DNA of 64,000 nucleotides from Tritonibacter mobilis (GTDB taxonomy: Bacteria; Pseudomonadota; Alphaproteobacteria; Rhodobacterales; Rhodobacteraceae), in contig NZ_LNWY01000008.1 in assembly GCF_001681715.1 (NCBI RefSeq), positions 1 through 64,000 on the forward strand, given 5' to 3'. The translations under genes were made by a program, and so were the position numbers. The notes below the pieces were generated by a model. The model saw nothing but the letters and a program-made list of their open reading frames with translations, was not told the origin of the DNA and did not search any database. Shown piece by piece: positions 13,153 through 63,661 of this stretch; position 1 is the stretch's first letter, and each line of letters starts with the position of its first letter.

Positions 13153-13179
13153 TCGCTCCAGATACATGCAGGCACTTTT

Positions 13180-45240: not shown

Positions 45241-48200
45241 TTAGCCGTTGCCGCCCAGAAGGGCCGCGTTACCACCGGCGGCGGTGGTATCGACGCAGAC
45301 GTGACGTTCCGCGAGGACGCGTGCGCGGTCCGGGGCTCCGGGGATGAGCGGGACAATCGGTCCGTCACGTTTGGCGAGGCTTTGTTCGATTTCGCGACCG
45401 GTGGCCTCATCGCCCCACCACAACACGCCGGAGATCCCGTCGAGATGCTGGAGACGATGCAGATCTACCATTCCGTTGGCCTTAATCGCGGTTCCACCGA
45501 GATCCGTGACCATTTTGGCCTGTTCGGTAACGGCATCCTTGCCGGGGCCCATGCACAACAGAGGCGCCCGCGCCGAAACCGTCAGACGGTTCGATTCACC
45601 TGTAGGGCCGGGCAGGGAGGTGGTTTCCGGGCGTCCGGGCTGGCCGCTCTCGCCGGGGATTTCGCCCATGGTCTGATCCCAAACAGCAGTGCTCTGGCGG
45701 CGATCCGGGGCGCAGAACCGGGCCAGATAGTTGGGGCCACCCGCCTTGGGTCCGGTGCCGGAAAGGCCCTCGCCGCCAAAGGGTTGGCTGCCAACGATTG
45801 CGCCGATCTGGTTGCGGTTCACATAGATGTTGCCCGCGTGGATACGGTCACACACGTGCTGCACGCGGTCATCAATCCGGGTTTGCAGACCAAAGGTCAG
45901 CCCATAACCAGTGACGTTGATGGCATCGATCACGTCATCAAGTTCGCGCGACTTGAAGGTTGCCACATGTAGTACCGGACCAAAGATCTCTTCTTTGAGA
46001 TCACTGATCCCGCCGATCGAGATCATCGTCGGGCCAACAAATGTCCCTCCCTGCGGGGCCTGCATTTCCTTGAGCACGCGGCCTTCAGTGCGGGCCTGGT
46101 CAATGTGGGCGAGGATTTTTGCGCGCGAACCTTCGTCGATAACCGGGCCACTGTCGGTGGACAGATGCCATGGATCGTCAAGATCCAGCACTTCCATTGC
46201 GCCCTTGAGCATGGTCAGCACATCTTCGGCGACGTCCTCTTGCAGGTAGAGGCAACGCAGCGCCGAGCAGCGCTGGCCCGCAGACTGAAACGCGCTCTCG
46301 ACCACGGCTTGCACGGCCTGTTCCGGCAGTGCGGTAGAGTCCACGATCATCGCGTTCAGACCACCGGTTTCGGCGATCAGGGGCGTGCCGGGCGCGCAAT
46401 GCTCAGCCATGGCCGAACGGATGCGCATGGCCGTCGCGGTAGAGCCGGTGAAGGCCACACCACCTACACGCGCATCACCGGTGATCGCCGCACCAACCTT
46501 GGAGCCACGACCGGGCAGGAACTGCAGCACTTCGCGCGGAACACCTGCCTCGTGCATCAGCTCAACCGCTCGGAAGGCCACCAACGGAGTTTGATCGGCA
46601 GGTTTGGCCAGCACAGCGTTGCCTGCAGCGAGCGCCGCCGACACCTGTCCGGTGAAGATCGCCAGTGGGAAGTTCCACGGCGAAATGCAGGTAAAGATCC
46701 CTGCAGGTGCAGCATTGGGGATGCGGGAAGCGTAATAGCGAAGGAAATCCACCGCCTCGCGCAGTTCCGCCACAGCGTCCATCTGGGTTTTGCCTGCTTC
46801 ACGGGCCAGAAGCGCGAACAACTCGCCAAAATTGGCTTCATAGAGGTCGGCCGCTTTGTTGAGCGCCGCCGCGCGCACCTTTGCTGGAGCGTCCCAAATA
46901 TTGGCGGAGGCAAGGGCAAGTTCCACATCCTCGGCGCTGGATTGGGCGACGGAACCGATTTCGCTGAGATCGCTGGGGTTAGTGACCGCAACGCGGGTTT
47001 CAGGCGTTGCCTCGCCCGCGATCAGTGGCACCGCGTCCCATGTGGCATCGCGGAAAGGGGCGCGGGCTTGTTCGATCGCGGCCAAAGTTGGCGCGTGACG
47101 CAGATCGAACCCTTTGGAGTTGGTCCGTTCCGGCTGGAACAGGTTCGGGCCGGTGGGAATATCCGTCGACAGGTCGTCCACCTGCAGGAAAGGATCCGCT
47201 GCAACCTCGCTTGGCGGCACGTCTTCGTCCACGATCTGGTTCACGAAGGAGGAGTTGGCGCCGTTTTCCAGAAGACGCCGCACCAAATAGGCGAGCAGAT
47301 CGCGGTGCGCCCCAACCGGCGCGTAGATGCGGCAGCGGGTTTTGTTCTTGTCCATCACCATCTGGTGCAGGGTCTCACCCATGCCGTGCAGGCGCTGGAA
47401 CTCATAGGCCTGACCGTCCTCGGCCATGTGCAAAATGGCGCTGACGGTGTGAGCATTGTGGGTGGCAAACTGCGGGTAGATCCGATCTGTGCGCGACAGG
47501 AGTTTGCGCGCATTGGCGATATAGGACACATCCGTGAGCGCCTTGGAGGTGAAGACCGGAAAGCCGTCCATCCCCTCAACCTGAGCGCGTTTGATCTCGG
47601 TGTCCCAATAGGCCCCTTTCACCAGACGCACCATGAAGCGGCGGTCGTATTTTTCCGCCATCTCGTAGAGCGCATCAATCGCCAGCCCGGTGCGTGGACC
47701 ATAGGCTTGAACGACAACACCAAAGCCGTCCCAGCCCTTGAGTGCTGGATCAGAGATCACCTCCTCGATCACTTCGAGCGAGATCGACAGGCGGTCGGCC
47801 TCCTCGGCGTCGATGTTGAGACCCATTTTTGCAGCCTTGGCCAACAGCGCCAGTGCCTTCAGGCGCGGCACCAGTTGTTGCTTGACCGAGGCTTCTTTGG
47901 CGATCTCGTAGCGCGGGTGCAGCGCCGAAAGCTTGACTGAGATGCCGGGGTTTTCGCGGATGTCGCTGCTTGTGCAAGCACTGGCAATAGCTGAGATCGC
48001 GCGGGAGTAGGCAAGGTGATAGCGCGATGCATCGGCTTCGGTCCGCGCAGCCTCGCCCAGCATGTCATAAGAATAGGTATAGCCTTTGGCTTCCATCCCG
48101 GAAGCGCGCTTCATCGCGCTCTCGATGGTCTCGCCCAATACGAACTGGCGTCCCATCTCCTTCATCGCGCGACCAACGGCGGTGCGGATGACCGGCTCAC

Positions 48201-48648
48201 CCAGACGTTTGATCGCGCCGCGCAGGGCACCGACGGGGCTTTTTTCCTCGTCCAGTACTTTGCCGGTCAGCATGAGCGCCCAAGTGGAGGCATTGACCAG
48301 CGAAGAGGTCGATTTTCCCATATGTTTGCCCCAGTCCGAGGGGGCGATTTTATCCTCGATAAGTGCGTCAATGGTATCCGCATCCGGTACCCGCAGCAGC
48401 GCCTCGGCCAGACACATCAGTGCCACGCCTTCGTCGGTCGACAGGCCATATTCAGCGAGGAAGACCTCCATCAAGCCGGGCGAGGAATGGCCGCGAATGT
48501 CCGTCACCAATTGGGTGGCGGAGGCGCAGATGGCAGAGCGATCCGCCTCGGAAAGAGCAGCCTGTGCCACCAGCGCGTCGCGCATGTTGGCCTGGTCCAC
48601 ATAGGTTCCGGCATCAATCCGGTCGCGCAAGCGCATATCACGAGTCAT
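45241..48648 (-). CDS. putA: Bifunctional proline dehydrogenase / glutamate semialdehyde dehydrogenase
   Basis: Oxidises proline to glutamate in two steps. The 1135 residues comprise an N-terminal arch/PRODH domain without a ribbon-helix-helix DNA-binding segment. A FAD-binding barrel follows (for example [20 protein letters not shown] and [19 protein letters not shown]), then an ALDH domain with [15 protein letters not shown] and the catalytic Cys794 in [11 protein letters not shown]. The C-terminus continues with a short domain. The absent RHH fits control by the divergent PutR. The ATG at 48648 has AAGGGGA upstream. Confidence 0.95.
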
Positions 48649-48700
48649 TTCTGTTCCCCTTGGTCAGAGATTTTTCCCCTTTTATCCTGTCCTCACTGGT

Positions 48701-48737
48701 CATTTGTCCTGATTGTTGCGATAGTACAGGACAAATG
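48701..48737. promoter_or_regulatory. Palindromic operator candidate between putA and putR
   Basis: Eleven-base perfect arms CATTTGTCCTG (48701-48711) and CAGGACAAATG (48727-48737) are separated by 15 bases in the divergent intergenic region. This is a plausible PutR (Lrp-type) binding site. A further ATCCTGTCCTC-like half-site lies just before it. Confidence 0.6.
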
Positions 48738-48760
48738 CGTTTATTTGCGGAGGGTTTTTG

Positions 48761-49237
48761 ATGCAATCGCGCTTTCCCGGATTGGACCGGTTCGATCAGG
48801 CGATTCTGCGCGAGTTGAGCCACAATGGCCGCAGTTCCGTATCTGACTTGGCCCGCGCTATCGGCCTGTCGAAATCGCCCACGCAGGCACGGTTGAAGCG
48901 GCTGGAGACGGAAGGGATCATTCAGGGCTACCGCGCCATGATTGATCCGATCCGGCTGGGGCTTGATCACGTGGCGTTCGTTGAGGTGAAACTCACCGAC
49001 ACGCGCGAGGCGGCGCTGGCGTCGTTCAACGCTGCGGTGGTGCAAGTGGCCGAAATCGAAGAGGTTCATATGCTGGCCTCACATTTTGACTATCTGCTGA
49101 AAGTTCGCTGCCGATCCATGTCAGATTTCCGCGCAGTTCTGGGTGAGAAGATCTCCTCCCTGCCGCATGTTTCTTCCACTTCGACCTACATGTCGATGCA
49201 AGCGGTAAAGGACGACGCGGGCCTCGGACCGATCTGA
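48761..49237 (+). CDS. putR: Lrp/AsnC regulator of proline use
   Basis: A 158-residue Lrp/AsnC protein. The HTH reads LRELSHNGRSSVSDLARAIG and SKSPTQARLKRLETEGIIQGY, and a RAM-type effector domain follows (VEVKLTDTREAALASF, then VAEIEEVHMLASHFDYLLKVR). Divergent placement to putA and the palindrome between them make PutR likely; PutR activates putA in response to proline in related bacteria. The start is ATG 48761, preceded by GGAGGG. Confidence 0.9.
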   Translation: MQSRFPGLDRFDQAILRELSHNGRSSVSDLARAIGLSKSPTQARLKRLETEGIIQGYRAMIDPIRLGLDHVAFVEVKLTDTREAALASFNAAVVQVAEIEEVHMLASHFDYLLKVRCRSMSDFRAVLGEKISSLPHVSSTSTYMSMQAVKDDAGLGPI

Positions 49238-51362: not shown

Positions 51363-52688
51363 TCATCGCTGAGTTGCAGCTGCGAACGCGGCCTCAATGG
51401 CATCCAAGAAAAGTTGTGCTTCGGTCTGCTGCAAGGCAAGTGGCGGGCGGATTTTGAGAATATTAGCTCCCGGGCCTGTCGCGCTTATGAGAACACCGTT
51501 TTCGCGCAAGTGATTGACTACAAAATGCGCAAGCGTTGCATCAGGTCTATGCGTCTCGTGCGAGGTGATGCATTCGACCGCGAGAAACAATCCAGCGCCT
51601 CGAACATGACCGATCTTCGGGTATCGGGTCGCGATATGCTGCAAACCCGCCTTGAGGAATGCGCCTACTTTAGCGGCGTTGGCTTGCAAACCTTCCTCCG
51701 CGATCACATCAAGCACTGCCATTCCCGCGGCTGCAGCGACAGGGTTTCCGCCAAAGGTGTTGAAATAACGCGCTTTCTCTCCAAACTCCTGAACGAGTTC
51801 GGGCCGCATCGCAGCTCCCGAAAGTGGGAAACCATTGCCCATAGGTTTGCCCATAGTGACCATGTCGGGCACGACCCCATGGCGTTGAAATCCCCAGAAC
51901 GTATCTCCTGTACGGGCAAAGCCGGGCTGCACTTCGTCGGCGATAAAAAGCCCGCCCTCGGCGCGAATCAGATCGACTGCCGGTTGCAGAAAACCCGCCG
52001 GATCAGGGTGCAAACCGTCGCTAGAAAAGATCGTGTCGACAATGAATGCGGCAGGCTCAATCCCATCGGCACGCATCTGCGCAATCGCGTGTGCCAGATC
52101 GGTTGCGAGTTTGGGACCTTGTTCGGCTGCAGGGATACGTAACGTATCCGGGGCATCAATCAGGCGGATGCGGGAACTGCGTGGGGTGAATTCCCCTAAC
52201 GAGGGGGAAAGTTCGGCAACCGCTTCGGTCAGCCCGTGATAGGCAAGACGGGTAACGATCACGCCCTGCCGCCGGGTATAACTTCGTGCAATACGCAGGG
52301 CGATATCGTTTGCCTCAGACCCGGTGCAGGTGAACATGACATGCCCAAGTGGGTCAGGCATTGTTGCCAATAGACGCTCAGCATAGTTCACAACGCCTTC
52401 ATGCAGATAACGGGTGTGGGTGTTCAAGGTGCTGAGCTGGTTGGAAATTGCCTCCACCACATGGGGATGGCAATGACCGACAGATGCGACGTTGTTATAC
52501 GCATCCAGATATCGGCGTCCGTCCTTGTCCCAAAGCCAGACCCCTTCACTGCGCTGGATATGCAGCGGCTGATCGTAAAAGAGCCGGTAAGCTGGACCAA
52601 GCGCCTTGGTCCGGCGGTCGATCAGGGCCTTGTCGGTTGCGTCGAGCGCGCTCGCCCGAGCACTGTCATAGGCGTTTATCATGGTCAT
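51363..52688 (-). CDS. Class III PLP enzyme of the AGXT2L/phospho-lyase type
   Basis: A 441-residue class III aminotransferase-fold protein. Its N-terminal motif [19 protein letters not shown] and the [19 protein letters not shown] stretch resemble AGXT2L1/AGXT2L2, which are phospho-lyases acting on O-phosphoethanolamine and 5-phosphohydroxylysine. PLP-binding motifs are [32 protein letters not shown] and Lys281 in [13 protein letters not shown]. The preceding kinase gene supports a kinase/phospho-lyase pair, but a true aminotransferase remains possible. It is the last gene of the catabolic operon. Confidence 0.85.
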
Positions 52689-52696
52689 GGGTCACT

Positions 52697-53806
52697 CTAT
52701 ATTGCCGCCGCGCGTTTCAGGGCGTTGATCACGGTTGCGTCACCAATTTGGTCAAGCGTGGCAAGCCCACGCTGCGCGGCGTCAGCATTGCGTAGAATGT
52801 ACGGCGCATTAGCTGGATACCGGCGCGCGCGCGACGCACCGATAGCAAGCGTTGTGGTATGGCGCAGGCGAATGAGGCTTGGCAAAAGTGCGATTTCATC
52901 AGGCTCTAGCTGGAGGCAGTTCGTATAGCCTGCCACCATCTCGCAGATCGCACGCAGCGGATCGGTTCCACTTCCGATCTGATAGGAGCAGGCCACGGCA
53001 AGATCGCATGCAATCGGCGTGTGCACCATATCCCCAAAATCAATCAGCCCAACGGGGTAGGTGGCATGGGGAGCATCGACCAAAATATTGTGCGGATTAA
53101 AATCATTATGCACGATCTGCGCTCTGAGACGCGGCAGCAATGGCGCGATTTCAGCCTCAAAGTGATCAAGCGTGCGCTCCAATTGAGCGCGCAGGTTGAT
53201 GTCCTGCATATCCGTCAAAAGTGGACGTAAATGGTGCGCCCGTTTGATGTCCCATTGCAGGAAATGATTTCCGCCGGCGTGAAAAAAGCTACGCAAACCA
53301 CGAGTTACGCGCGCATGGAAGTTTCCCAATGCAGGGTAAAGGTTGGGGCCGGGCGTTGCATGACTGAGGGTCGTTCCTTCCAGATAAGACATCAGCCGCA
53401 CAACGTGGCTTTGACCGTCAGATGCCGTGACAATCTCCGCAGCTTTGCCGTTCAGGCTGGCGCAGATCCGTTGTACGGGCAGGGTGGGATCGGTTGCGGC
53501 AAGATGCATCAGCGCCGCAGTCTGCATATCTGTTACCGTGCGCGCTTCGGCAGCATTGGTGATCTTCAGGAGCGCCCGTTCGCCTGTTGGCAGGGTAATC
53601 AGGAAGTTGGCGTCTTTTTCCGCCGATAACGGTTTGATCGCGCCTGACAGGCCATAACACCGCAAGGCGGTTTCTGCTGCAAGCGCGCAATCAAAAGCGG
53701 GGGGATCCTGCGCCAGCAAATCCGTTTTAGGGCTGGCCTCTTCGAGCAGCACTCCGCTCAGAAAAGGGGGGAGACCGTTTCGTGGGATTAACCCCGCATC
53801 GCTCAT
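52697..53806 (-). CDS. APH-family kinase, hydroxylysine-kinase-like
   Basis: A 369-residue aminoglycoside-phosphotransferase-fold kinase. The catalytic loop IVHNDFNPHNILVD (His233, Asp235, Asn240) and the metal motif GLIDFGDMVHTPIACDLA match the hydroxylysine kinase/HYKK branch as I recall it, where FGDM is typical. It should phosphorylate a hydroxyl group on an amine or amino acid. Its stop lies 8 bases before the phospho-lyase-like gene, and it overlaps the upstream deacylase gene by 4 bases. Confidence 0.82.
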   Translation of the reverse strand: MSDAGLIPRNGLPPFLSGVLLEEASPKTDLLAQDPPAFDCALAAETALRCYGLSGAIKPLSAEKDANFLITLPTGERALLKITNAAEARTVTDMQTAALMHLAATDPTLPVQRICASLNGKAAEIVTASDGQSHVVRLMSYLEGTTLSHATPGPNLYPALGNFHARVTRGLRSFFHAGGNHFLQWDIKRAHHLRPLLTDMQDINLRAQLERTLDHFEAEIAPLLPRLRAQIVHNDFNPHNILVDAPHATYPVGLIDFGDMVHTPIACDLAVACSYQIGSGTDPLRAICEMVAGYTNCLQLEPDEIALLPSLIRLRHTTTLAIGASRARRYPANAPYILRNADAAQRGLATLDQIGDATVINALKRAAAI

Positions 53807-55092
53807 GGGGTGATGTCCTCAGTCCCACACCATTCGGCGATAAACAGTGCCATGGCTTGGGTGATTTTCTTGATCGAACTGAGGCTGACGGATTCATTTA
53901 TCCCGTGAATATTGCGCGACTTCGGTCCGTAGCAGAGCGCCGGGATCTTGTTATAGAGCGCATATACCCGCGTATCGAGATAACCGGCTGTCATAAAGGA
54001 TTGAAGCGGTGCGCCGATGGCGCTCTCGTGGGCGCGTTCCAACACCGCTTCGGCCTCGCTGCCCAGCTCCAGCACGTAGCCTTCGGCATGAAAGCCGTTA
54101 AAGACGATCTTTGGCGGATTGTTGGACAAGAAACCATCGGTCTGGGCGAAGGCTTTGACCCGTTCGGTGATTTCGCGTGCGGCGTCTTCTGCACTGCGGC
54201 CGGGGTAGATGGAAACACGGCAATCGATGTTGCACCACGACGGCACCGAAGAGGCCCAATCGCCACCTTCAATCTTGCCTATATTGAGGTTGATCGGATG
54301 TGCTTCCTCCTCGAAATGGGGATGGTTTCCTTTCTCGGCGTTCCAATCCTCCTCCATGGCGCGCAGGGCTGTGATGACGCGGGTGGCCGCATCAATCGCA
54401 TTTGCGCCTTCGCCCATTTCACGCACATGCACAGGGACGCCACGCACCTGCACCTGAAACCAGATGACGCCGGTATTGGCACGCACCAGCATTTCCTCTT
54501 CCGGCTCTGGGATCAGCACTGCATCAGCGGTGTAGCCCTGTAAAAAGGTCTGCAAAGCACCGTTGCCGGTGGATTCTTCCTCCACCACAGATTGTATGTA
54601 AACCGTTGCAGCCGGTTGCAGCCCGATCCGGCGCAGCGCATCCAGTGCAAAAATATTTGCCGCTGCCCCCGCCTTCATATCGCCCGCGCCCCGGCCATAC
54701 ATCCAGTCTCCTTCAATTCTGGCGGAGAAGGGCGGGTTATCCCACATATCGTGCAGCCCCTCCGGCACCACATCGAGATGAGATTGAAGGATCAATGAGC
54801 GACCAACCTCTTTGGCTGGACGGTGGATTCCCACCACGATTGGGGCGTCGGAGTGGTCGTCTGAGTATTTCGAACCGCCCGGATGCGCCTCGATTGCAGC
54901 ACGGTCCATCTTGAAACGGTCCATCGCATAGCCACGATTTTGTAAGGTGCGAAACAGAAGATCCTGGATTGCATGCTCGTGGCCGCGCAACGATGGGATT
55001 TGCACCAATTGTTGCGTATAGCTGATTTGGTCTGCGAACCCGTCGTCAACCGCCTGAAGGATGCGCGCTTTGAGGTCTGGATCGAGGGACAT
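53803..55092 (-). CDS. M20-family deacylase (ArgE/DapE-type)
   Basis: A 429-residue dinuclear zinc amidohydrolase. Metal ligands are visible in LILQSHLDVVPEG (His), GRGAGDMKAG (Asp), VVEEESTGNG (Glu-Glu) and LIPEPEEEM (Glu), with a C-terminal His in KSRNIHGINESV. The dimerisation domain with HVREMGEGANAIDAA is complete. It should remove an N-acyl group from an amino acid or related amine. It is the third gene of the operon (after the HDAC-like and ThDP genes) and overlaps the kinase gene by 4 bases. Confidence 0.85.
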   Translation of the reverse strand: MSLDPDLKARILQAVDDGFADQISYTQQLVQIPSLRGHEHAIQDLLFRTLQNRGYAMDRFKMDRAAIEAHPGGSKYSDDHSDAPIVVGIHRPAKEVGRSLILQSHLDVVPEGLHDMWDNPPFSARIEGDWMYGRGAGDMKAGAAANIFALDALRRIGLQPAATVYIQSVVEEESTGNGALQTFLQGYTADAVLIPEPEEEMLVRANTGVIWFQVQVRGVPVHVREMGEGANAIDAATRVITALRAMEEDWNAEKGNHPHFEEEAHPINLNIGKIEGGDWASSVPSWCNIDCRVSIYPGRSAEDAAREITERVKAFAQTDGFLSNNPPKIVFNGFHAEGYVLELGSEAEAVLERAHESAIGAPLQSFMTAGYLDTRVYALYNKIPALCYGPKSRNIHGINESVSLSSIKKITQAMALFIAEWCGTEDITP

Positions 55093-55110
55093 GTCGTTTC
55101 CTTTCAGGGA

Positions 55111-56673
55111 TTAGAGCATCGCTTCGATGAGGAAGGGGCCGGGTTCTTTCGCTGCATCCTCAATGGTGCGCATCAGATCGGTTATGTCTTCGACGCGTAT
55201 GCCGGGAACCCCCATCCCTTTGGCAAGTGCCACGAAATCCAACTGTGGGCGGTCGAGGTTCAGCATGCTCAAGGCATCGGGACCGGGTTGCGCGCCGACA
55301 TTGTGCAGCTCGCCCTTCAAAATTTCATATGACTGATTGGCGAGAATGACCGTGGTGACGTTGGAGTTTTCTCGCGCTTGCGTCCAAAGCGCCTGAATAG
55401 TGTACATCGCTGACCCATCCGCCTGAAGCGTGATCACCGGACGATCCGGGCAGGCAATGGCAGCCCCGGCAGAGAGCGGTATGCCGATACCGATCGACCC
55501 GCCAGTAAGCGCTAGCCATGTGTTGGGCGCGGCGCTGTCTCCCGCAGGGAAGGTGGCCCCGCCAGATGATACCGCCTCATCAACCACGATGGCATTTTCC
55601 GGCAACGCATGCGCGAGAGCCGCGCCGAGGTTCTGCAAGGTTATTGCCCCGGCTTGCGGTCGTGCGGGTCTTTCAGAGTCATGCGGTGTGGCGGCTTTGG
55701 CTCCGATGCAATCGGCCAGGGCCGCCAAGGCGGCGGGACCATCGCCGTCAACGGCAGCCAGTGTGACAGTGTGGCAGTCTGTTGGCAGAAGCAGACTTGG
55801 TCTGCCGGGGTAGGCAAAAAACGCCACCGGCGGTGGGGTCTCGATCAGGATTGCGCGTCTGTAGGGCGCGAGGCATTCGAGCGCGGCATTGATCGGATAG
55901 GGGATTTTATTGATCGCAAAATGCCCGTGACCGCGCTCTATACGGCGGTTTGATGTGGGCGCGAGGATATCCGCCCCGGTCTTTGCCGCGATGCCATGCA
56001 ATACGGCCATGGCATCCGGGTTCTCCAACACCGAACTGCCCACAAGTAAAACGGTTTTCTCGCCGCTTTCGAGCGCCCTGATCGCAGCATCGAGCGCGCG
56101 TTCGTCAAGCGGGCCCGCGGCGTGTGGGGCAACAACAGTTGCCATCTTGCCGCCTGCATCCCAACCAATGTCTGCAGGTGCAATGAGCGAGGCAATCTTT
56201 CCAGGCTTGCTTTGTGCCACGGCCAAAGCGGTCATCGCGTCGGCTGCAAAACTGCCTGCATCGCGGCCCGAGCGCACCCAGTCACTGAATGGCGCGCACG
56301 CGCCCTCAACATCTGCAGACAGTGGCGCGTCGTATTTTTGATGGCGCAACGCATGATCGCCTACGAGGTTCAGCATCGGCACGCGCGCTTTGCGGGCATT
56401 GTGCAGATTGGCGGCCGCATTGGCGAAACCGGGCGCAAGATGCAGCAAGGTTACGGCCGGTTTCTGGGCCATGCGCGCATACCCATCGGCAGCCCCTGTT
56501 ACCACGCCCTCAAAAAGCCCAAGCACACAGCGCATCAGTTTGGTTCGGTCCAATGCGTCGACGAATTGCATCTCGGACGTGCCGGGATTGGCGAAACAGA
56601 CATCGACCCCACCCGCATGCAGGCTTCGAACAACGCTCTCGGCGCCGTTCATTGTCTCAGGTGTCTTGCTCAT
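55111..56673 (-). CDS. ThDP-dependent acetolactate-synthase-like enzyme
   Basis: A 520-residue ThDP enzyme of the ALS/benzoylformate-decarboxylase fold. The N-terminal FANPGTSEMQFVDALD and the catalytic Glu region GLFEGVVTGAADGYARM are clear. The C-terminal ThDP motif is altered: LQADGSAMYTIQALWTQAR replaces the usual GDGS, and ILANQSYEILKGEL follows where NN is expected. It acts on a 2-keto acid or related substrate, but the reaction is unknown. Its start overlaps the HDAC-like gene by 4 bases. Confidence 0.82.
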   Translation of the reverse strand: MSKTPETMNGAESVVRSLHAGGVDVCFANPGTSEMQFVDALDRTKLMRCVLGLFEGVVTGAADGYARMAQKPAVTLLHLAPGFANAAANLHNARKARVPMLNLVGDHALRHQKYDAPLSADVEGACAPFSDWVRSGRDAGSFAADAMTALAVAQSKPGKIASLIAPADIGWDAGGKMATVVAPHAAGPLDERALDAAIRALESGEKTVLLVGSSVLENPDAMAVLHGIAAKTGADILAPTSNRRIERGHGHFAINKIPYPINAALECLAPYRRAILIETPPPVAFFAYPGRPSLLLPTDCHTVTLAAVDGDGPAALAALADCIGAKAATPHDSERPARPQAGAITLQNLGAALAHALPENAIVVDEAVSSGGATFPAGDSAAPNTWLALTGGSIGIGIPLSAGAAIACPDRPVITLQADGSAMYTIQALWTQARENSNVTTVILANQSYEILKGELHNVGAQPGPDALSMLNLDRPQLDFVALAKGMGVPGIRVEDITDLMRTIEDAAKEPGPFLIEAML

Positions 56674-57698
56674 GAACTGGCCTCGCGGAATGCTGTGAGA
56701 AAAGATCTGGCGTTGTCGGCCAGCGAGGGTCCAAGGTAACCGCCCTCCTGAATGAGAGCTGTCGGAAGGTTGAGCGCTGCCAACCGTCGTGCCATTTCGG
56801 CAAAGCCTTCTGGATAGACCGAGACGGCGGCAAGCGGGTCATCAACCGCCATGTCAAAGCCAAGCGAAACAACCAACGCCTCTGCACCAAAGTCGCGTAT
56901 CGCCGAGAGCCCTGTGTCAAGCGTGGCCAACACATCTTCTTGGCTCGCGCCTTGTTCAAGCAGCAGGTTCAGCGATTTTCCAGCCCCGTCCCCTTCGCCC
57001 GTTTCATCCGCATGACCAAGGAAGAATGTCGGATAGGTCGCGGGATCTGGATGCAGAGAGCAAAAGAAAACGTCGCCGCGTTCATAAAAAATATCGAGAG
57101 AGCCATTCCCGGTATGCACATCCACGTCAATCAGCGCGACCTTAGTGTAGGTTCGCGTCAGGTGATGCGCGGCGATCGCGGCATTGTTGAAAAAGCAAAA
57201 TCCGTTGGCACAATCGCGCATCGCGTGATGGCCCGGCGGACGGCAGAGGGCATAGGCCGCGCGCTCCCCTGACGCGATGGTTTCAGCGGTTTGCACTGCC
57301 GTTTGCGCCGACCAATAGGCGGCGTCCCATGTGCCTTCGGTCAAGGGAGTCGATGTATCAGTCATCCACCAGCCCAATTGACCATGAATATCCTTTGGCA
57401 CTTTGCCACGTCGCACACCGGGGTGCATCGTGGGAATCGCCAGTGCCTCTGACCCCGCGCTTTCAACAAAACGGGCGTGGGCGGTGGGCAGGAAATCGAC
57501 ATAGTCTGGATTGTGAACCGCCTTGATCGGGTCCAGCCCATGGTCCTGTGGCTTGGTGATTTCGAACCCTTCGCCGATCAACATATCGCGTAGAATTTCA
57601 GCACGTTCGGGCTGTTCTTGATGCGGCATCGCCGCCCCGCGCCGAAAGTAATGAGTCGGCGCATGGCGCAGCTGGCGTTCGTCAAAAAAGACTCTCAT
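56670..57698 (-). CDS. Acetylpolyamine-amidohydrolase-like (HDAC family) enzyme
   Basis: A 342-residue HDAC-superfamily deacetylase. It has RPPGHHAMRDCANGFCFFNN with His157/His158, the metal ligands Asp193 and His195 (IDVDVHTGNGS), Asp282 (LGFDMAVDDP) and the transition-state Tyr321 (QEGGYLGPSLA). Spacing and length match Mycoplana-type acetylpolyamine amidohydrolase as I recall it. It should remove acetyl groups from small amines rather than histones. It is the first gene of the operon, divergent from the GntR gene. The ATG at 57698 is preferred to 57701 on spacing to GGGA. Confidence 0.87.
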   Translation of the reverse strand: MRVFFDERQLRHAPTHYFRRGAAMPHQEQPERAEILRDMLIGEGFEITKPQDHGLDPIKAVHNPDYVDFLPTAHARFVESAGSEALAIPTMHPGVRRGKVPKDIHGQLGWWMTDTSTPLTEGTWDAAYWSAQTAVQTAETIASGERAAYALCRPPGHHAMRDCANGFCFFNNAAIAAHHLTRTYTKVALIDVDVHTGNGSLDIFYERGDVFFCSLHPDPATYPTFFLGHADETGEGDGAGKSLNLLLEQGASQEDVLATLDTGLSAIRDFGAEALVVSLGFDMAVDDPLAAVSVYPEGFAEMARRLAALNLPTALIQEGGYLGPSLADNARSFLTAFREASS

Positions 57699-57766
57699 CA
57701 TATTCCCTGTGGACCAATAGTGTTGTGCCAGAGCATTGCAGTTCAAATTTGCCAACTCAACAAAAA

Positions 57767-57803
57767 TGATGCATCATGCATCAAAATAGACCATGAATTG
57801 GTC
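57767..57803. promoter_or_regulatory. Two palindromes in the divergent control region
   Basis: TGATGCATCATGCATCA (57767-57783) is a near-perfect palindrome with a single central base. GACCATGAATTGGTC (57789-57803) has GACCA/TGGTC arms. Both lie between the HDAC-like operon and the gntR start (57822) and are candidate GntR operators. Confidence 0.6.
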
Positions 57804-57821
57804 AACCAAGAAGAGGGCACG

Positions 57822-58481
57822 ATGGCCGAAATCAATCAAGTATCATTGGGTGACGCCATCTATCAGCGGCTTAGTCAGGACTTGGTCAGTGGCAAGCTGC
57901 GTCCTAATGAAAAGGTGACAATTCGGGGACTCGCGGAGCGTCTGGGGACCAGTTCGACTCCGGTTCGGGATGCGGTGCAGCGACTGTTGCGAGATGAGGC
58001 GCTGGAGCAACGGAGCATGCGCGATGTCCGTGTGCCGGTGCCGACCAAGGCTCAGTATCTTGAAATCGCGAGCATTCGGCGAGAGTTGGAAGGCTTTGCC
58101 GCAAGCCGCGCTGCCGAGATGGTGGGTCCGAAGGAAATTCGCCGCCTAAATCAGATCGTTGAGAAAAATGAGGCAGCTGCAAAAGCCGGGCGCTGGTCTC
58201 AGGCTGTGAAGTACAATCAGGAGTTCCATTTTGCATTGGTCGAAGGGGCCGATATGCCCATTCTTTTGGCCATCCTCAGCAGGCTTTGGTTGCGAATGGG
58301 GCCATTGATTGCCGGGTACTACGCCCGTGAACAGGTCGCCTTGGTTCGACATCATCAAACAATTGTTGCAGCCTGCGAGAATCGCGACCCTGCCGCCGCG
58401 GCTGCTGCAATGCGTGCGGACATCGATGACGCAAAGGAGGGGATCATCAGATACATTGAGTCATTCACGACCAACGATTGA
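57822..58481 (+). CDS. GntR-family (FCD-type) regulator
   Basis: A 219-residue GntR regulator. The winged HTH includes GDAIYQRLSQDLVSGKLRPN and VTIRGLAERLGTSSTPVRDA. An FCD-type helical effector domain follows, with acidic and His residues that bind metal and a small organic ligand. It lies between the divergent catabolic operon and the ABC transporter and is the likely regulator of both. The start at 57822 gives the normal length. Confidence 0.9.
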   Translation: MAEINQVSLGDAIYQRLSQDLVSGKLRPNEKVTIRGLAERLGTSSTPVRDAVQRLLRDEALEQRSMRDVRVPVPTKAQYLEIASIRRELEGFAASRAAEMVGPKEIRRLNQIVEKNEAAAKAGRWSQAVKYNQEFHFALVEGADMPILLAILSRLWLRMGPLIAGYYAREQVALVRHHQTIVAACENRDPAAAAAAMRADIDDAKEGIIRYIESFTTND

Positions 58482-58590
58482 GACATCCAAACCCTGCACA
58501 GCGCAGGTCTAGTGACTAGCGAACGCGCAAATCGGCGCCAGATCGAACGTGCTCGCGGAATAGATTCAACATGAGCCAATGGGGAAAGAC

Positions 58591-60153
58591 ATGTTTAAAA
58601 CTACAAAATTGACCGCAGCCGTTTTAGCGCTGGCGCTCGCCGGGCCGCTCGCCGCGCAAGATGGCACACCCAAGGCGGGGGGCACGCTAAATGTCGTAAT
58701 CCAGCCAGAGCCGCCCAGCCTCATGATCGGCCTTGTGCAGAACGGGCCGACGCAGATGGTCGGGGGCGACATTTATGAGAGCCTCTTGCGCTATGATTTT
58801 GACCTGAAGCCTGAGGGCCAATTGGCGGAGTCGTGGGAGATTTCAGAAGACGGCAAGACCTATACCTTCAAATTGCGCAAGGGCGTGGTCTTTCATGATG
58901 GAGAACCGTTCACCTCGGCCGATGTCGAATTTTCCATGGATAAGTTCCTGCGCGAGACGCACTCGCGCATGCGCACCTATATGGAGCACGTCGAGAGTAT
59001 CGAGACACCGGATGACTACACGGTTGTGTTCAAGCTGAAGCAACCTTTCGGCCCGTTTATCGGTATTTTTGAGGCGGGCACCGCGCCCATGATCCCCAAG
59101 CACATCTATGAAGGGACGGATTTTGCCAATAACCCGGCAAACAACACGCCGATTGGCACCGGTCCTTTTAAGTTCGACAAATGGGAGAAGGGCAGCTTTA
59201 TCCATCTCGTGAAAAACGAAGACTACTACATGGAGGGGAAACCCTATGTGGATGAAGTCTACTATCACGTGATCCCAGACGCCGCCTCGCGTGCGGTGGC
59301 CTATGAAACCGGTAAGGTGGATGTTCTGCCGGGCGGTTCTGTCGAAAATTTTGACGTGGCGCGGATTCAAGCGATGGACAATACCTGCATCACCGACAAA
59401 GGGTGGGAGTATTTTGGTCCGCTGTCATGGATGTGGGTCAATAATGACAATAAGCCGCTCGATGATGTGAAGGTGCGCAAGGCCATTATGCACGGCATCG
59501 ATCGTGAGTTTGCCAAGGATGCTCTGTGGAATGGCCTTGGCAAGGTTGCGACCGGCCCACTCTCCTCCTCCACCCGGTTTTACGATGGCGATACGCCAGA
59601 CATTTCGTATGACCCCGATCAGGCCAAAGCTCTGCTTGCTGAAAGCAGCTACAACGGGGAAACCATCCGCATTCTGGGCCTGCCCTACGGCGAGACATGG
59701 CAGCGTTGGGCCGAGGCGGTCAAACAGAACCTCAGTGAAATCGGTATGACAACCGAGATCGTGCCTTCTGACGTAGCGGGTTGGAACCAGAAGGTTGCGG
59801 ATCGTGATTTCGATCTCGCTTTTACCTATCTCTACCAATATGGCGATCCGGCACTGGGCGTTTCGCGGACCTATATGGGCGACAATGCTGCCCCCGGCTC
59901 GCCATGGAATAACGTGGCGGATTACCAAAACCCCGAGACGGACAAACTGTTTGACGCCGCTGCGCTGATGGCCAGCCCCGATGACCGCATGGCCGCCTAC
60001 AAAACGATCCAAGATAAGATCGTTGAAGATGTGCCAAATATCTGGCTGCTGGAACTGGGTTTCCCCACGATCTACCGCTGTGATGTGAAGAACCCCGTCA
60101 ACACTGCGTTTGGTGTGAATGACGGGTTCCGTGACGTCTGGATCGACAAGTAA
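58591..60153 (+). CDS. Peptide-type ABC transporter binding protein (SBP family 5)
   Basis: A 520-residue periplasmic SBP of the DppA/OppA class. The signal peptide (TTKLTAAVLALALAGPLAAQ) is followed by GGTLNVVIQPEPPSL and the family-5 signature LAESWEISEDGKTYTFKLRKGV with FHDGEPFTSADVEFSM. These proteins bind di- or oligopeptides, opines or other amine-containing solutes. It is the first transporter gene, 109 bases after gntR. The ATG at 58591 has GGGGAAAG upstream; an earlier in-frame start at 58579 is less likely. Confidence 0.9.
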   Translation: MFKTTKLTAAVLALALAGPLAAQDGTPKAGGTLNVVIQPEPPSLMIGLVQNGPTQMVGGDIYESLLRYDFDLKPEGQLAESWEISEDGKTYTFKLRKGVVFHDGEPFTSADVEFSMDKFLRETHSRMRTYMEHVESIETPDDYTVVFKLKQPFGPFIGIFEAGTAPMIPKHIYEGTDFANNPANNTPIGTGPFKFDKWEKGSFIHLVKNEDYYMEGKPYVDEVYYHVIPDAASRAVAYETGKVDVLPGGSVENFDVARIQAMDNTCITDKGWEYFGPLSWMWVNNDNKPLDDVKVRKAIMHGIDREFAKDALWNGLGKVATGPLSSSTRFYDGDTPDISYDPDQAKALLAESSYNGETIRILGLPYGETWQRWAEAVKQNLSEIGMTTEIVPSDVAGWNQKVADRDFDLAFTYLYQYGDPALGVSRTYMGDNAAPGSPWNNVADYQNPETDKLFDAAALMASPDDRMAAYKTIQDKIVEDVPNIWLLELGFPTIYRCDVKNPVNTAFGVNDGFRDVWIDK

Positions 60154-60156
60154 CAA

Positions 60157-60199
60157 GAGCGAAAACGCTCAAGGTCTGGGCCGTTTTGGCGGCCCGGAC
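60157..60199 (+). promoter_or_regulatory. Two hairpins after the binding-protein gene
   Basis: GAGCG-AAAA-CGCTC is followed by GTCTGGGCCG and CGGCCCGGAC arms around a TTTTGG loop. Placed between binding-protein and permease genes, they probably favour binding-protein expression by partial termination or mRNA protection. Confidence 0.55.
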
Positions 60200-60228
60200 A
60201 CTTCTCGGAACCAAACGGGGCGGATAGT

Positions 60229-61200
60229 GTGATACGTTTCATTTTGGGCAGGTTGATCAAGGCAGTCTTTATTCTGCTGGCCATTCTTGTCTTCAATTTC
60301 TTGCTGATCCATGCGGCGCCGGGTGATCCTGCGGCTGTGATGGCCGGTGAAGCCGGAGCAGCAGACGAAAAATTCCTTGCAGACCTGCGTGCCAATTTTG
60401 GACTGGACCAACCCCTTTATGTCCAGTTGTGGCTTTATATCAAAGGCGCGGTGCAACTCGATCTGGGGTATTCCTTCCGCCAGCAGATGCCGGTCGCCGA
60501 AATGATTGGGGACCGCTTGCCTGCAACGCTATTGCTGACGGGCGTCGCATTTGTGCTGTCGCTGGTGCTGGGTGTCGCCGCGGGTGTGGCGGCCTCAGCT
60601 CGGCAAGGACGGTGGGGAGATACGATCATTTCCACCTTTGCGCTCCTGTTTTATGCAACCCCTCTGTTCTGGGTGGCGCTGATGGCGACACTCGTGTTTT
60701 CCGTTTGGCTCGAATGGTTGCCGGGATTTGGCTACTCCACAATCGGCGCGGGTTACACGGGACTGGCTCATGTGCTCGACGTCGCCAAACACCTGGTGCT
60801 GCCAGCGTCCACACTGGGGCTGTTTTTTACTGCGATTTACATGCGCATGACACGCGCTTCGATGCTCGAAGTTTCGCGGTTGGATTTTGTGAAGACAGCA
60901 CGTGCCAAAGGGTTGTCTCGTGGCGTGATCCAGCGACGGCACATTCTGAGAAACGCACTTTTACCGGTCATTACACTCGCTGGCCTACAAGCCGGGCAAA
61001 TTTTCGGCGGAGCAATTCTAACTGAGACCGTTTTTGCATGGCCTGGCATCGGGCGGCTGATGTTCGAAGCCATAAACCAACGGGATTACAACGTCATCCT
61101 TGGCGTCTTTTACATCTCAGCGGCCATGGTACTGCTGTTCAATCTGATCACGGATGTCATCTATGTCATTGTTGATCCGCGGATAAGGCTGACAACATGA
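60229..61200 (+). CDS. Peptide-type ABC transporter permease 1 (DppB-like)
   Basis: A 323-residue permease starting with GTG (MIRFILGRLIKAVFILLAILVFNFLLIHAAPGDPA), the DppB N-terminus with the APGDPA motif. Six segments and the EAA-type loop RARGLSRGVIQRRHILRNALLP-like stretch near residues 222-245 are visible. It pairs with permease 2, which it overlaps by 4 bases. Confidence 0.9.
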   Translation: MIRFILGRLIKAVFILLAILVFNFLLIHAAPGDPAAVMAGEAGAADEKFLADLRANFGLDQPLYVQLWLYIKGAVQLDLGYSFRQQMPVAEMIGDRLPATLLLTGVAFVLSLVLGVAAGVAASARQGRWGDTIISTFALLFYATPLFWVALMATLVFSVWLEWLPGFGYSTIGAGYTGLAHVLDVAKHLVLPASTLGLFFTAIYMRMTRASMLEVSRLDFVKTARAKGLSRGVIQRRHILRNALLPVITLAGLQAGQIFGGAILTETVFAWPGIGRLMFEAINQRDYNVILGVFYISAAMVLLFNLITDVIYVIVDPRIRLTT

Positions 61201-62036
61201 AGAGCTTTTGGACACGTTTCAGCTATAATCGAGGCGCGGTGATCGGTCTGGTAATCCTGACACTTGTTATCGCGACAGCCATTCTCGCACCTTTCCTCTT
61301 TCCACAAAGTCCGTGGAAAATGGTGCAACGTCCGTTCCTGCCACCGTTTACTCAGGATGGGTTGCCACTGGGCACCGATGCGCTTGGTCGCAATGTGCTG
61401 TCGGGCCTCGCTCATGGGGCCTATGTCAGCCTCTTGGTGGGCTTAGTTTCCACAATCGTTGCACTTGCAATCGGCGTTCCTGTCGGCGCGGCAGCGGGAT
61501 ATTTCGCCGGGCGTACAGATGATGCGCTGATGCGATTTACGGAGTTTTTTCAAACAATTCCGAGTTTTGCTTTGGCGATTGTGCTATTGGCAATCTTTCA
61601 GCCCAGCCTGACCTTTGTGATCATCGCAATTTCTATCGTGTCATGGCCGCCTGTGGCGCGGCTTGTACGGGGCGAGGTTTTGTCGCTCAGAACCCGTGAG
61701 TTTGTGGAAGCAGCCAGCCTTTCTGGCCTCGGCAATCTGCAAATCATCCTCCGCCACATCCTGCCAAATGCGCTGCCGCCGATCATTGTGCTCGCGTCGC
61801 TTATGGTCGCACAGGCGATCCTCTTGGAAAGCTCGCTTTCTTTCCTTGGTCTGGGTGATCCGAACATCATGTCATGGGGCTATATGATCGGTGCGGCGCG
61901 CACCGTGATCCGCACCGCGTGGTGGCTGTCGTTCCTGCCGGGGATGGCGATCCTCTTGACCGTGCTGGCGCTGAACTTGATCGGCGAGGGCCTGAATGAT
62001 GCGTTGAACCCACGCTTGACGAGGAAATCCGAATGA
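61197..62036 (+). CDS. Peptide-type ABC transporter permease 2 (DppC-like)
   Basis: A 279-residue DppC/OppC-like permease. The N-terminal segment is followed by the periplasmic GLPLGTDALGRNVLSGLAHGA motif and the EAA loop TREFVEAASLSGLGNLQIIL with RHILPNALPPIIV. It overlaps both neighbours by 4 bases. Confidence 0.9.
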   Translation: MKSFWTRFSYNRGAVIGLVILTLVIATAILAPFLFPQSPWKMVQRPFLPPFTQDGLPLGTDALGRNVLSGLAHGAYVSLLVGLVSTIVALAIGVPVGAAAGYFAGRTDDALMRFTEFFQTIPSFALAIVLLAIFQPSLTFVIIAISIVSWPPVARLVRGEVLSLRTREFVEAASLSGLGNLQIILRHILPNALPPIIVLASLMVAQAILLESSLSFLGLGDPNIMSWGYMIGAARTVIRTAWWLSFLPGMAILLTVLALNLIGEGLNDALNPRLTRKSE

Positions 62037-63661
62037 CCCTGCTCAGCATACGTGACCTCTCTATCGCCTTGCCACTCGGAGCGGATCGGCTTTACGCGGC
62101 CAAAAACATCAATTTTGATCTCGCCTCTGGTGAAATTCTCTGCATCGTTGGAGAAAGCGGATCGGGAAAGTCCATGTCCGCCAATGCTGTCATGGGTTTG
62201 TTACCGCAAGGTGTCGAGCCAGATAGTGGCAGCATCACTTTTGACGGCCAGTCGATCCTTGATTTGTCGGAAAACGAGTTGCTGAAGCTGCGCGGCAGTC
62301 GCATCTCGATGATCTTTCAGGAGCCACTCAGCGCGCTTAACCCCCTCATGCGTGTCGGGGCTCAGATTTCCGAAGTGTTTGAGGCCCACGGCGCGCTGAC
62401 GGGTGCCGAACGGCGCGCACGGGCCCTCAAACTGCTGGATGAAGTCGGTATCCCAGATCCGGAAGCGGCGATCAGAGCCTATCCTTTCCAGCTATCCGGC
62501 GGGCAAAGGCAACGGGTTATGATCGCCATGGCATTGGCACTGGAACCGGACATCCTGATCGCAGATGAACCGACCACTGCGCTTGATGTGACAACACAGG
62601 CGCAAATTCTTGCGCTGATCGAGGATCTGCGGAAAAAGCGTGGCATGGCTGTAATCTTTATCACCCATGATTTTGGCGTGGTGGCGGATATCGCCGACCG
62701 GGTGATCGTCATGAAAAAGGGCGAGATTGTTGAAGCCGGTCGTGCGCCGGATGTGTTGTTGAACCCGCAACACCCCTACACCCGTGCATTGATCGACGCG
62801 ATCCCGCGGCTGACCAAAACAGAACCCGTCGAAGAGGTCGAGCGCGCGCCTTTGCTCAAGGTCGAAGGTTTGCAAAAGACCTTCTCGACCGGCTCTGGCA
62901 CGTTGTTTGGCAAGCGCCGGGTCGTGAAGGCCGTGCAAGATGTGAGCTTCGATCTCTACGCGGGCGAGACCATTGGCATCGTTGGAGAATCTGGGTCGGG
63001 CAAATCAACCGTCGGTCGGTGCCTGGTGCGCCTGCTTCATCCTGACGGGGGGCGGGTGTTGATGGACGGCGTCGATATTGCCCATATGTCTGGCGCTGAA
63101 TTGCACGCACAGCGACGCAAACTGCAAATGATCTTCCAAGATCCGTTTTCATCGCTTAATCCTCGTGCGCGTGTTTCACGGATCCTTACGGAAGGCATGA
63201 TCGCCTATGGTATGCCCGACAAAGAAGCGAAGGCCAAAGCCCGAGAGTTACTCGAATTGGTCGGTTTGGATGAAACCGCGATGAAGCGTTTCCCGCATGA
63301 GTTCTCCGGTGGCCAACGACAACGAATAGGCATCGCACGCGCACTTGCACTGGAGCCTGCGATCATTATCGCGGATGAGGCCGTCTCGGCGCTTGATGTA
63401 TCTATTCAGGCGCAGGTGTTGGATTTGCTGGCTGAACTGAAGGAGCGATTGCATCTGTCGATGCTATTCATCACTCACGATTTACGCGTAGCGGCACGTA
63501 TTTGTGACCGTATTATCGTGATGCAAAAAGGGCAGATCGTCGAAGCCGGGCCTGTCAATAAGGTGCTGCACGATCCCGACACCGCTTATACCAGCAGTCT
63601 CCTAGAGGCTATTCCGGGGCAAGATTACGAACGCAGTCTAGCGGCCGCCAACAAAGGATAA
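62033..63661 (+). CDS. Peptide-type ABC transporter ATPase, DppD and DppF fused
   Basis: A single 542-residue protein with two complete ABC ATPase domains, so the usual DppD and DppF are fused. The first has Walker [12 protein letters not shown] and signature [15 protein letters not shown] near residue 156. The second has Walker [13 protein letters not shown] and signature [15 protein letters not shown] near residue 425. Each is followed by the short oligopeptide-type C-terminal segment ([17 protein letters not shown] and [16 protein letters not shown]). It completes the transporter. Confidence 0.92.

What the first reader, a model, noticed from the sequence alone, without database searches (positions are those of the whole stretch)
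51363..63661. Unrecognised catabolic cluster: deacetylase, deacylase, HYKK-like kinase, AGXT2L-like phospho-lyase, ThDP enzyme, GntR and peptide-type importer
Five minus-strand genes, three junctions of which overlap or nearly touch, diverge from a GntR/FCD regulator and a full ABC importer. The kinase has the HNDFNPHN and DFGDM motifs of hydroxylysine-kinase-like enzymes, and the class III PLP enzyme resembles AGXT2L phospho-lyases. In animals this kinase/lyase pair degrades 5-hydroxylysine. The APAH-like and M20 enzymes suggest the imported compound is N-acylated. I infer: import, deacylation, O-phosphorylation, elimination of phosphate and ammonia to an aldehyde, and keto-acid chemistry by the ThDP enzyme. 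The actual substrate is unknown; acylated hydroxylysine, hydroxylated polyamines or related amines are candidates.
Basis: partly seen in the sequence, partly recalled or inferred. Interest (0 to 1): 0.85.

Follow-up and report, generated by a model that had tools for sequence, protein, structure and literature searches.

The report
Amide-import and amino-alcohol breakdown gene cluster
A marine bacterium carries a ten-gene set that appears to import an amide compound, cut it open, phosphorylate the released amino-alcohol and split off phosphate and ammonia to leave an aldehyde; the enzyme families are well supported by sequence, the natural substrate is still unknown.

Summary
In detail: five minus-strand enzyme genes diverge from a GntR/FCD regulator and a complete Opp-type importer. 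The kinase is of the APH-fold family that precedes a phospho-lyase gene in 87 of 88 loci. Its family profile best matches the microcompartment aminopropanol kinase 6ef6; HYKK could not be compared. Hydroxylysine is not favoured over smaller amino-alcohols.

New here: the cluster is a mosaic. Importer, APAH-type deacetylase and M20 deacylase also occur without kinase and lyase (0 of 31 importer loci have them); the kinase-lyase pair occurs mostly without this importer (71 of 88). A 17-bp palindrome beside the regulator, the only site with under 3 mismatches in this genome, recurs in 17 of 88 kinase loci (Roseobacter group, Microvirga, Azospirillum, Enterobacterales) and in 0 of 31 kinase-less importer loci. 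Verdict: a real, conserved catabolic locus; new variant of known chemistry; substrate unresolved.

The parts
51363..52688 (-). Class III PLP enzyme of the phospho-lyase clade (ETNPPL/5g4i type); Schiff-base Lys281 (by alignment with GabT)
   Evidence: PDB 5g4i 370 bits, 6tor 338 bits, next GabT 199 bits; tree 100/100; 15 lyase-typical positions
52697..53806 (-). APH-fold small-molecule kinase, probably for an amino-alcohol; Lys81, Asp235, Asn240, Asp256 conserved
   Evidence: PF01636; matches the N-terminal part of fusion model PRK06148, 252 bits, under that model's cut-off for the whole fusion; profile best PDB match 6ef6; AF2 model pLDDT 90.2; conservation
53803..55092 (-). M20 ArgE/DapE-family deacylase (PRK06837)
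   Evidence: 684 bits against cut-off 376; nearest solved chain 3pfo
55111..56673 (-). ThDP-dependent enzyme (PRK07586), nearest solved relatives benzoylformate decarboxylases
   Evidence: 685 bits against cut-off 363; LHLAPG and NPGTSE motifs in 10 of 10 orthologues examined
56670..57701 (-). HDAC-superfamily amidohydrolase, acetylpolyamine-amidohydrolase-like, zinc-site motifs intact
   Evidence: PF00850; nearest PDB 3men, 9gkz, 3q9b; motifs
57767..57783 (.). Operator candidate: 17-bp palindrome TGATGCATCATGCATCA between deacetylase and regulator
   Evidence: Only site with 0-2 mismatches in the 4.7-Mb genome; conserved in related loci
57822..58481 (+). GntR/FCD transcription factor
   Evidence: PF00392 and PF07729; in a group of 27 regulators that holds all 15 rows with the operator (quick tree)
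58579..60153 (+). Solute-binding protein, family 5 (Opp/Dpp/Nik type)
   Evidence: PF00496; nearest PDB AgaA 6hlx; 80-90% identical in the 8 window-type loci of other species
60229..61200 (+). Permease, OppB/DppB type
   Evidence: PF00528 and PF19300
61197..62036 (+). Permease, OppC/DppC type
   Evidence: PF00528 and PF12911
62033..63661 (+). Fused double ATPase, DppD-DppF type
   Evidence: PF00005 twice, PF08352

Best explanation
It is a catabolic locus made of two modules under one GntR switch. The first module imports an amide and hydrolyses it: Opp-type ABC importer, then the APAH-like and M20 amidohydrolases release a primary amine. The second module removes the nitrogen: the APH-fold kinase phosphorylates a hydroxyl next to the aminomethyl group (a vicinal amino-alcohol), and the PLP enzyme eliminates phosphate and ammonia to give an aldehyde. 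The ThDP enzyme most likely works on a 2-oxo acid or aldehyde from the other half of the compound or from the product, as a decarboxylase or carboligase. The GntR protein most likely binds the TGATGCATSATGCATCA palindrome and is released by the amino-alcohol or a metabolite of it. Shown by sequence: family membership, lyase-typical and catalytic residues, gene linkage, operator conservation. Inferred: every reaction, the order of steps, regulator binding, the effector, and the substrate. My ranking of the released amine is a small amino-alcohol such as 1-amino-2-propanol first, then 4-amino-3-hydroxybutyrate, 5-hydroxylysine, 2-hydroxyputrescine.
For: PLP enzyme: 370 and 338 bits to the two phospho-lyase structures against 199 to the next class III enzyme; 33 lyase rows and 14 transaminase rows split by one branch, 100/100; all 15 lyase-typical positions, chosen on the same alignment. 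Kinase: catalytic residues conserved in 12 and 20 homologues; model pLDDT 90.2 with APH-fold matches; best profile match 6ef6, E 2.6e-11. Pair: 87 of 88 loci. Deacylation and import: importer and HDAC both in 17, neither in 71 of 88 kinase-centred loci; HDAC in 12 and M20 in 6 of 31 kinase-less importer loci. Regulation: operator with up to 2 mismatches in 17 of 88 kinase loci (9 exact) and 0 of 31 kinase-less importer loci, no exact match of 40 shuffled palindromes; only this one of 385 class genomes has an exact site; among the 9 other window-type loci the 7 with GntR have the site with 0-1 mismatch and the 2 without GntR do not. Precedent: passages in PMC4207490 and PMC6620236 describe 1-amino-2-propanol loci with GntR, short-chain dehydrogenase, phosphotransferase and aminotransferase-like genes.
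Against: No activity is known for any of the ten proteins. Importer, HDAC and M20 occur without kinase and lyase in other Alphaproteobacteria, so the imported compound need not be an amino-alcohol there. The deacetylases of the eight more distant importer-plus-kinase loci are only 38-45% identical to the window's and may not do the same job. A single-sequence search finds only amicoumacin kinase in the PDB (24.5 bits), and in the fold search amicoumacin and homoserine kinases rank above 6ef6. No SDR like that of the 1-amino-2-propanol loci lies in the cluster. The nearest GntRs and the nearest kinase-lyase pairs come from different loci, so effector and substrate may have changed. The role of the ThDP enzyme is guesswork; the residue aligned to BFD position 281 is not His.
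Confidence: 0.6

Rival explanations
1. One reading: acylated 5-hydroxylysine is imported and degraded by a HYKK/PHYKPL-like pair to aminoadipate semialdehyde, then keto-acid chemistry by the ThDP enzyme.
For: Lyase of the same clade as human ETNPPL and a kinase of the fold expected; two kinds of amidohydrolase could remove N-alpha and N-epsilon acyl groups; a ThDP 2-oxo acid enzyme could act after transamination.
Against: The closer partner of the human lyase in this genome is the fusion gene on C1, not the window enzyme. None of the ten cluster genes is an aminoadipate-semialdehyde dehydrogenase or other lysine-pathway gene; the rest of the genome was not searched for them. The nearest solved kinase by profile is for aminopropanol.
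Confidence: 0.12
2. The amine is 4-amino-3-hydroxybutyrate (or an acyl form), and the lyase product is succinate semialdehyde.
For: In four Enterobacterales loci (L034, L049, L054, L099) the same operator and kinase-lyase operon follow gabT- and gabD-like genes.
Against: Those gab genes lie upstream of the operator and could be a separate operon; no aldehyde dehydrogenase of that kind lies in the window cluster.
Confidence: 0.14
3. Hydroxylated or acetylated polyamines such as 2-hydroxyputrescine: deacetylation, phosphorylation, elimination to 4-aminobutanal.
For: Deacetylase closest to acetylpolyamine amidohydrolases.
Against: The importer is of the Opp type; M20 and ThDP enzymes are not needed for it.
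Confidence: 0.1
4. Two unrelated functions side by side: an amide importer with deacylases, and an amino-alcohol kinase-lyase operon, sharing only a promoter region.
For: Each module occurs without the other: 71 of 88 kinase loci lack importer and HDAC, 31 of 31 importer loci fetched lack the kinase.
Against: The five enzyme genes nearly touch and the operator lies in the divergent region; the joined arrangement is kept in nine further window-type loci and, with other accessory genes, in eight loci of Microvirga, Bosea, Pararhodobacter and Burkholderiales.
Confidence: 0.13
5. The PLP enzyme is an ordinary omega-transaminase and the kinase an unrelated APH protein.
For: Pfam and NCBIfam names are generic.
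Against: Tree, scores and lyase-typical residues.
Confidence: 0.03

Closest known systems
1-Amino-2-propanol / aminoacetone utilization (RMM, AAU, Aut) loci of Mycobacterium and Rhodococcus
   Same: GntR regulator, APH-fold amino-alcohol kinase (6ef6 is the best profile match of the window kinase family), aminotransferase-like gene in the locus; passages in PMC4207490 and PMC6620236.
   Different: Those loci have microcompartment shell genes and a short-chain dehydrogenase; the window genome has no BMC shell match and the cluster no SDR. The window adds an importer, two amidohydrolases and a ThDP enzyme. The mycobacterial lyase sequence was not compared.
Animal HYKK with PHYKPL, and ETNPPL
   Same: Kinase plus class III phospho-lyase (pathway recalled); ETNPPL (6tor) is in the same clade.
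   Different: The window lyase is on another branch of that clade than ETNPPL; the fusion protein of the same genome is closer to it. HYKK and PHYKPL were not available for comparison.
Arthrobacter phospholyase 5g4i/5g4j
   Same: Best PDB match of the lyase (370 bits) and same clade.
   Different: Its gene context was not examined.
PRK06148-type kinase-peptidase-lyase fusions
   Same: Kinase and lyase domains in one chain.
   Different: In the window they are separate genes, without the M23 domain that lies between them in the fusion, and in a different cluster.
Acetylpolyamine amidohydrolases (3men, 3q9b, 6phr)
   Same: Full-length sequence similarity and intact zinc-site motifs.
   Different: DVDVHTGNG or DIDVHTGNG in the ten window-type sequences, where the others examined mostly have HHG; substrate untested.

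Membership tests
Class III phospho-lyases (ETNPPL/PHYKPL/5g4i) | Clade with solved phospho-lyases apart from transaminases | tested here: met
   33 lyase rows against 14 transaminase rows, 100/100; several transaminase rows are on long branches
Class III phospho-lyases (ETNPPL/PHYKPL/5g4i) | Residues shared by 5g4i and 6tor and rare or absent in transaminases | tested here: met
   15 of 15 positions present in the window enzyme; the positions were defined on the same alignment
Class III phospho-lyases (ETNPPL/PHYKPL/5g4i) | Release of phosphate and ammonia from an O-phospho-amino-alcohol | not testable with these tools
   needs enzyme assay
HYKK hydroxylysine kinases | APH fold and catalytic motifs | tested here: met
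   PF01636, conserved residues, model and fold matches
HYKK hydroxylysine kinases | Placement on the HYKK branch of the family | not testable with these tools
   no HYKK sequence in the collections; tree with bacterial outgroups unresolved
HYKK hydroxylysine kinases | Activity on 5-hydroxylysine | not testable with these tools
   needs enzyme assay
AAU/RMM 1-amino-2-propanol loci | Microcompartment shell proteins | tested here: not met
   PF00936: 0 matches in the genome, control rings in 2 of 14 genomes
AAU/RMM 1-amino-2-propanol loci | Aminopropanol dehydrogenase (SDR) in the locus | tested here: not met
   no SDR family among the ten cluster genes
AAU/RMM 1-amino-2-propanol loci | Amino-alcohol kinase of the 6ef6 type | tested here: inconclusive
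   best profile match but distant, 46 bits; not found by the single sequence
Acetylpolyamine amidohydrolases | HDAC fold with zinc-site motifs and GGY motif | tested here: met
Acetylpolyamine amidohydrolases | Hydrolysis of acetylated polyamines | not testable with these tools
   needs enzyme assay
Acetohydroxyacid synthases | Closest to biosynthetic acetolactate synthases | tested here: not met
   141 bits to a benzoylformate decarboxylase, 87 bits to the best AHAS chain; TIGR00118 107 bits against cut-off 538. NCBI's model PRK07586, which it passes, is nevertheless named acetolactate synthase large subunit

The most novel reading that the evidence does not exclude
A dedicated, undescribed catabolic route in marine and soil Proteobacteria for N-acylated (amide-bound) vicinal amino-alcohols, assembled by joining an amide importer-deacylase module to a phosphorylation-dependent deamination module, with one GntR group and one palindrome (TGATGCATSATGCATCA) controlling a set of amino-alcohol kinase-phospho-lyase operons in Alpha- and Gammaproteobacteria, including an E. 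coli plasmid from a human sample.
Probability: 0.45. Interest if true: 0.65.

Novelty: new variant of a known kind. Interest (0 to 1): 0.52.

Why it matters
Lyases are few among characterised class III aminotransferase-family enzymes (PMC8154272, passages), and the bacterial ones met here in annotated records carry aminotransferase names. The 15 lyase-typical residues and the kinase neighbour give a simple way to re-annotate them. The shared operator makes the unknown effector testable with one regulator, and the module comparison narrows the substrate to an amide that yields a vicinal amino-alcohol. If confirmed it adds a nitrogen-scavenging route to Roseobacter-group bacteria.

Tried and rejected
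Ordinary transaminase: rejected by tree and residues. A first PLP tree had two mis-extracted outgroup rows (own_L123, own_L132, branch length 10) and was replaced. A first gene-calling script failed in high-GC loci and was replaced by a codon-usage caller. Kinase tree: of five own-genome APH rows tried only two gave a usable sequence, both on very long branches (10 and 6.9), and one fell among the fusion kinases; unresolved. SBP structure for a ligand clue: model failed, pLDDT 57, not used. Microcompartment version: no shell match. Regulon elsewhere in the genome: no second site with 0-2 mismatches; 11 other places have 3 mismatches, against 1 for the reversed control pattern, so weak sites are not excluded; I did not examine them. 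Variant palindromes upstream of the 28 regulators without the site: no shared one seen apart from one identical GC-rich 17-mer in the related pair L031 and L043. Literature on the cluster, on bacterial hydroxylysine or on amino-alcohol phospho-lyase pathways: searches listed no paper that by title or start of abstract describes this cluster; the listings are capped and many papers are not held, so this is weak evidence of absence. PMC4349456 (passages) concerns a methylglyoxal-responsive regulator with other neighbours and was not used.
Full report
What is there. The window lies in a genome very close to Tritonibacter mobilis: the ten proteins are 97-100% identical to those on a plasmid of T. 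mobilis F1926. Family scans give class III PLP enzyme, APH-family kinase, M20 deacylase PRK06837, ThDP enzyme PRK07586, HDAC-superfamily amidohydrolase, GntR/FCD regulator, family 5 solute-binding protein, two permeases and a fused double ATPase. In addition I found a 17-bp palindrome, TGATGCATCATGCATCA, at 57767-57783 between the deacetylase and the regulator.

The PLP enzyme. Against solved structures it scores 370 bits with the Arthrobacter phospholyase 5g4i and 338 bits with human ethanolamine-phosphate phospho-lyase 6tor; the next class III enzyme scores 199. In a careful tree of 47 rows, chosen from 108 available, 33 rows labelled lyase (the window enzyme, 29 kinase-linked homologues from other loci, 5g4i, 6tor and the fusion domain of this genome) are split by one branch, 100/100, from 14 transaminase rows, nine of them from this genome; several transaminase rows have long branches. 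Fifteen positions are shared by nearly all lyases including both solved ones and occur in at most one transaminase row, among them N65, N66, R93, W265, G280, P282, N285, F309, N310 and K412; the window enzyme has all fifteen. They were chosen on the same alignment, so they describe the clade rather than test it independently. Within the clade the human enzyme groups with the lyase domain of a 1060-aa APH-M23-aminotransferase fusion at G000:C1:297761-300943 of this genome (99/94), not with the window enzyme.

The kinase. It matches PF01636 and, among NCBIfam models, the N-terminal part of the fusion model PRK06148 (252 bits, under that model's cut-off for the whole fusion). D235, N240 and D256 are invariant and K81 invariant or nearly so in 12 and 20 homologues. 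The AlphaFold2 model has mean pLDDT 90.2. In Foldseek the first matches are amicoumacin kinase and homoserine kinase; the structure titled microcompartment-associated aminopropanol kinase, 6ef6, is sixth. A single-sequence search of the PDB finds only amicoumacin kinase (24.5 bits). A profile of 20 kinases finds 6ef6 first (E 2.6e-11, 46 bits), then homoserine kinase (27 bits) and amicoumacin kinase (24 bits). HYKK is not in the collections, so HYKK membership was not tested; a tree with two usable APH outgroups was unresolved.

Linkage. In 87 of 88 the lyase follows the kinase directly (the exception is L107). HDAC and orthologous importer occur together in 17 loci and both are missing in 71. 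Fourteen of the 88 have short flanks; one of these is among the 17, and L038, a 5-kb fragment that looks like the window type, counts as negative. Nine of the 17 have the window's gene set, two of them without GntR. The other eight (Microvirga 2, Bosea, Pararhodobacter, Burkholderiales 4) keep importer genes, HDAC, kinase and lyase but differ in the rest: another ThDP family (PRK08199) in three, an aldehyde dehydrogenase in three, carbamoylase-type M20 in four, PRK06837-type M20 in two, GhrA-like reductase and an omega-transaminase in four. The loci are related to each other, so the counts are not independent events.

Two modules. Searching from the other side, 22 of 385 alphaproteobacterial genomes, this one included, have the SBP at E 1e-130 or better (at most three candidates per genome were scored). 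All 31 places besides the window's own were fetched; nine have less than 8 kb on at least one side. HDAC is present in 12, M20 in 6, GhrA-like reductase in 10, omega-transaminase in 6. The kinase is in none of 31 even at E 1e-5; the lyase query meets only class III enzymes at 27-33% identity in eight, and the ThDP queries only weak matches (26-33% identity) in three. So importer and deacylases are a module of their own, and the kinase-lyase pair another. The window pair is nearer to pairs beside B12-dependent diol dehydratase genes in L031, L032, L042 and L043 (Shinella, Agrobacterium, a Rhizobiales bacterium, Rhizobium; kinase 53-59%, lyase 70-76%) than to the pairs of the eight more distant loci that share the importer (kinase 39-43%, lyase 58-61%).

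The operator. In this genome the palindrome has one exact site and no other with fewer than 3 mismatches; 11 places have 3 mismatches, against 1 for the reversed control, and were not examined. Among the nine other window-type loci, the seven with a GntR gene have it with 0 or 1 mismatch, and the two without GntR (L040, L044) have only 5- and 3-mismatch remnants. With up to 2 mismatches it occurs in 17 of 88 kinase loci, 9 of them exact: seven window-type, two Microvirga (just before the kinase), four of six Azospirillum (before GntR-kinase-lyase), four Enterobacterales (before an ABC importer, SDR, kinase, lyase). It is in 0 of 31 kinase-less importer loci, and 40 shuffled palindromes gave no exact match in the kinase loci. 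Of 385 alphaproteobacterial genomes only this one has an exact site; 17 others of them have a kinase match, many in fusions, without an exact site. In a quick tree of 43 GntR proteins the 15 operator rows all fall in one group of 27 rows (SH-aLRT 93), with 12 rows that lack the site; 16 rows lie outside. Three operator loci had no GntR called nearby. The regulator therefore follows the kinase-lyase pair rather than the importer, which suggests that it senses the amino-alcohol or a metabolite. That is an inference.

Mechanism. Import by the Opp-type system, amide hydrolysis by APAH-like and M20 enzymes, O-phosphorylation next to the aminomethyl group, elimination of phosphate and ammonia to an aldehyde, and ThDP chemistry on a 2-oxo acid or aldehyde. 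The ThDP enzyme is nearer to benzoylformate decarboxylases than to acetolactate synthases and keeps the residues aligned to BFD Glu28, Glu47 and His70, but not His281 (residue roles and numbers recalled; alignment). Papers seen only as passages describe 1-amino-2-propanol loci with GntR, short-chain dehydrogenase, phosphotransferase and aminotransferase-like genes, some with diol dehydratase (PMC4207490; PMC6620236). The paper on the mycobacterial aminopropanol kinase and the 2012 paper on HYKK and the human lyases were not held; I know them from reference lists and recall. The classical bacterial 1-aminopropan-2-ol pathway through kinase and phospho-lyase is recalled.

Substrate. Not settled. 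A small amino-alcohol such as 1-amino-2-propanol has the best support (nearest solved kinase by profile, diol-dehydratase and SDR contexts of related pairs). 4-Amino-3-hydroxybutyrate is suggested by gabT- and gabD-like neighbours in four Enterobacterales loci. 5-Hydroxylysine is possible but has no specific support here.

Verdict. The finding is real and mostly well read; the hydroxylysine comparison was too narrow. It is a new variant of a known kind: known enzyme chemistry in an arrangement that my searches did not find described, with a new and testable operator.

Noticed in passing
L134:1762-4944 (-), i.e. G000:C1:297761-300943: A 1060-aa APH-M23-class III aminotransferase fusion in the same genome; its lyase domain groups with human ETNPPL (99/94), making it the closer relative of the animal enzyme.
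   Followed up: partly
L034 (NZ_CP107722.1, E. coli plasmid from a rectal swab), 2584-13210: gabT- and gabD-like genes, then the same 17-bp operator, then ABC importer, SDR, amino-alcohol kinase and phospho-lyase on an IncFIB plasmid; 39 Klebsiella plasmid records also hold a kinase relative.
   Followed up: partly
L031, L032, L042, L043: Kinase-lyase pairs beside B12-dependent diol dehydratase and SDR genes; gene content recalls the RMM2 loci described in PMC4207490 (passages).
   Followed up: no
L137-L149: Related importers with HDAC, M20, class II aldolase, GhrA- or ketopantoate-reductase-like and omega-transaminase genes in varying sets but no kinase-lyase; possibly a family of amide-scavenging loci for hydroxy-acid amides.
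   Followed up: partly
window 45241-49237: Bifunctional proline dehydrogenase (PutA type, 1135 aa) next to an Lrp/AsnC regulator upstream of the cluster; ordinary.
   Followed up: yes
G000:C58:65059-72804: Sugar-type ABC importer with TIM-barrel and FGGY kinase genes directly beyond the cluster; no sign that it belongs to it.
   Followed up: partly
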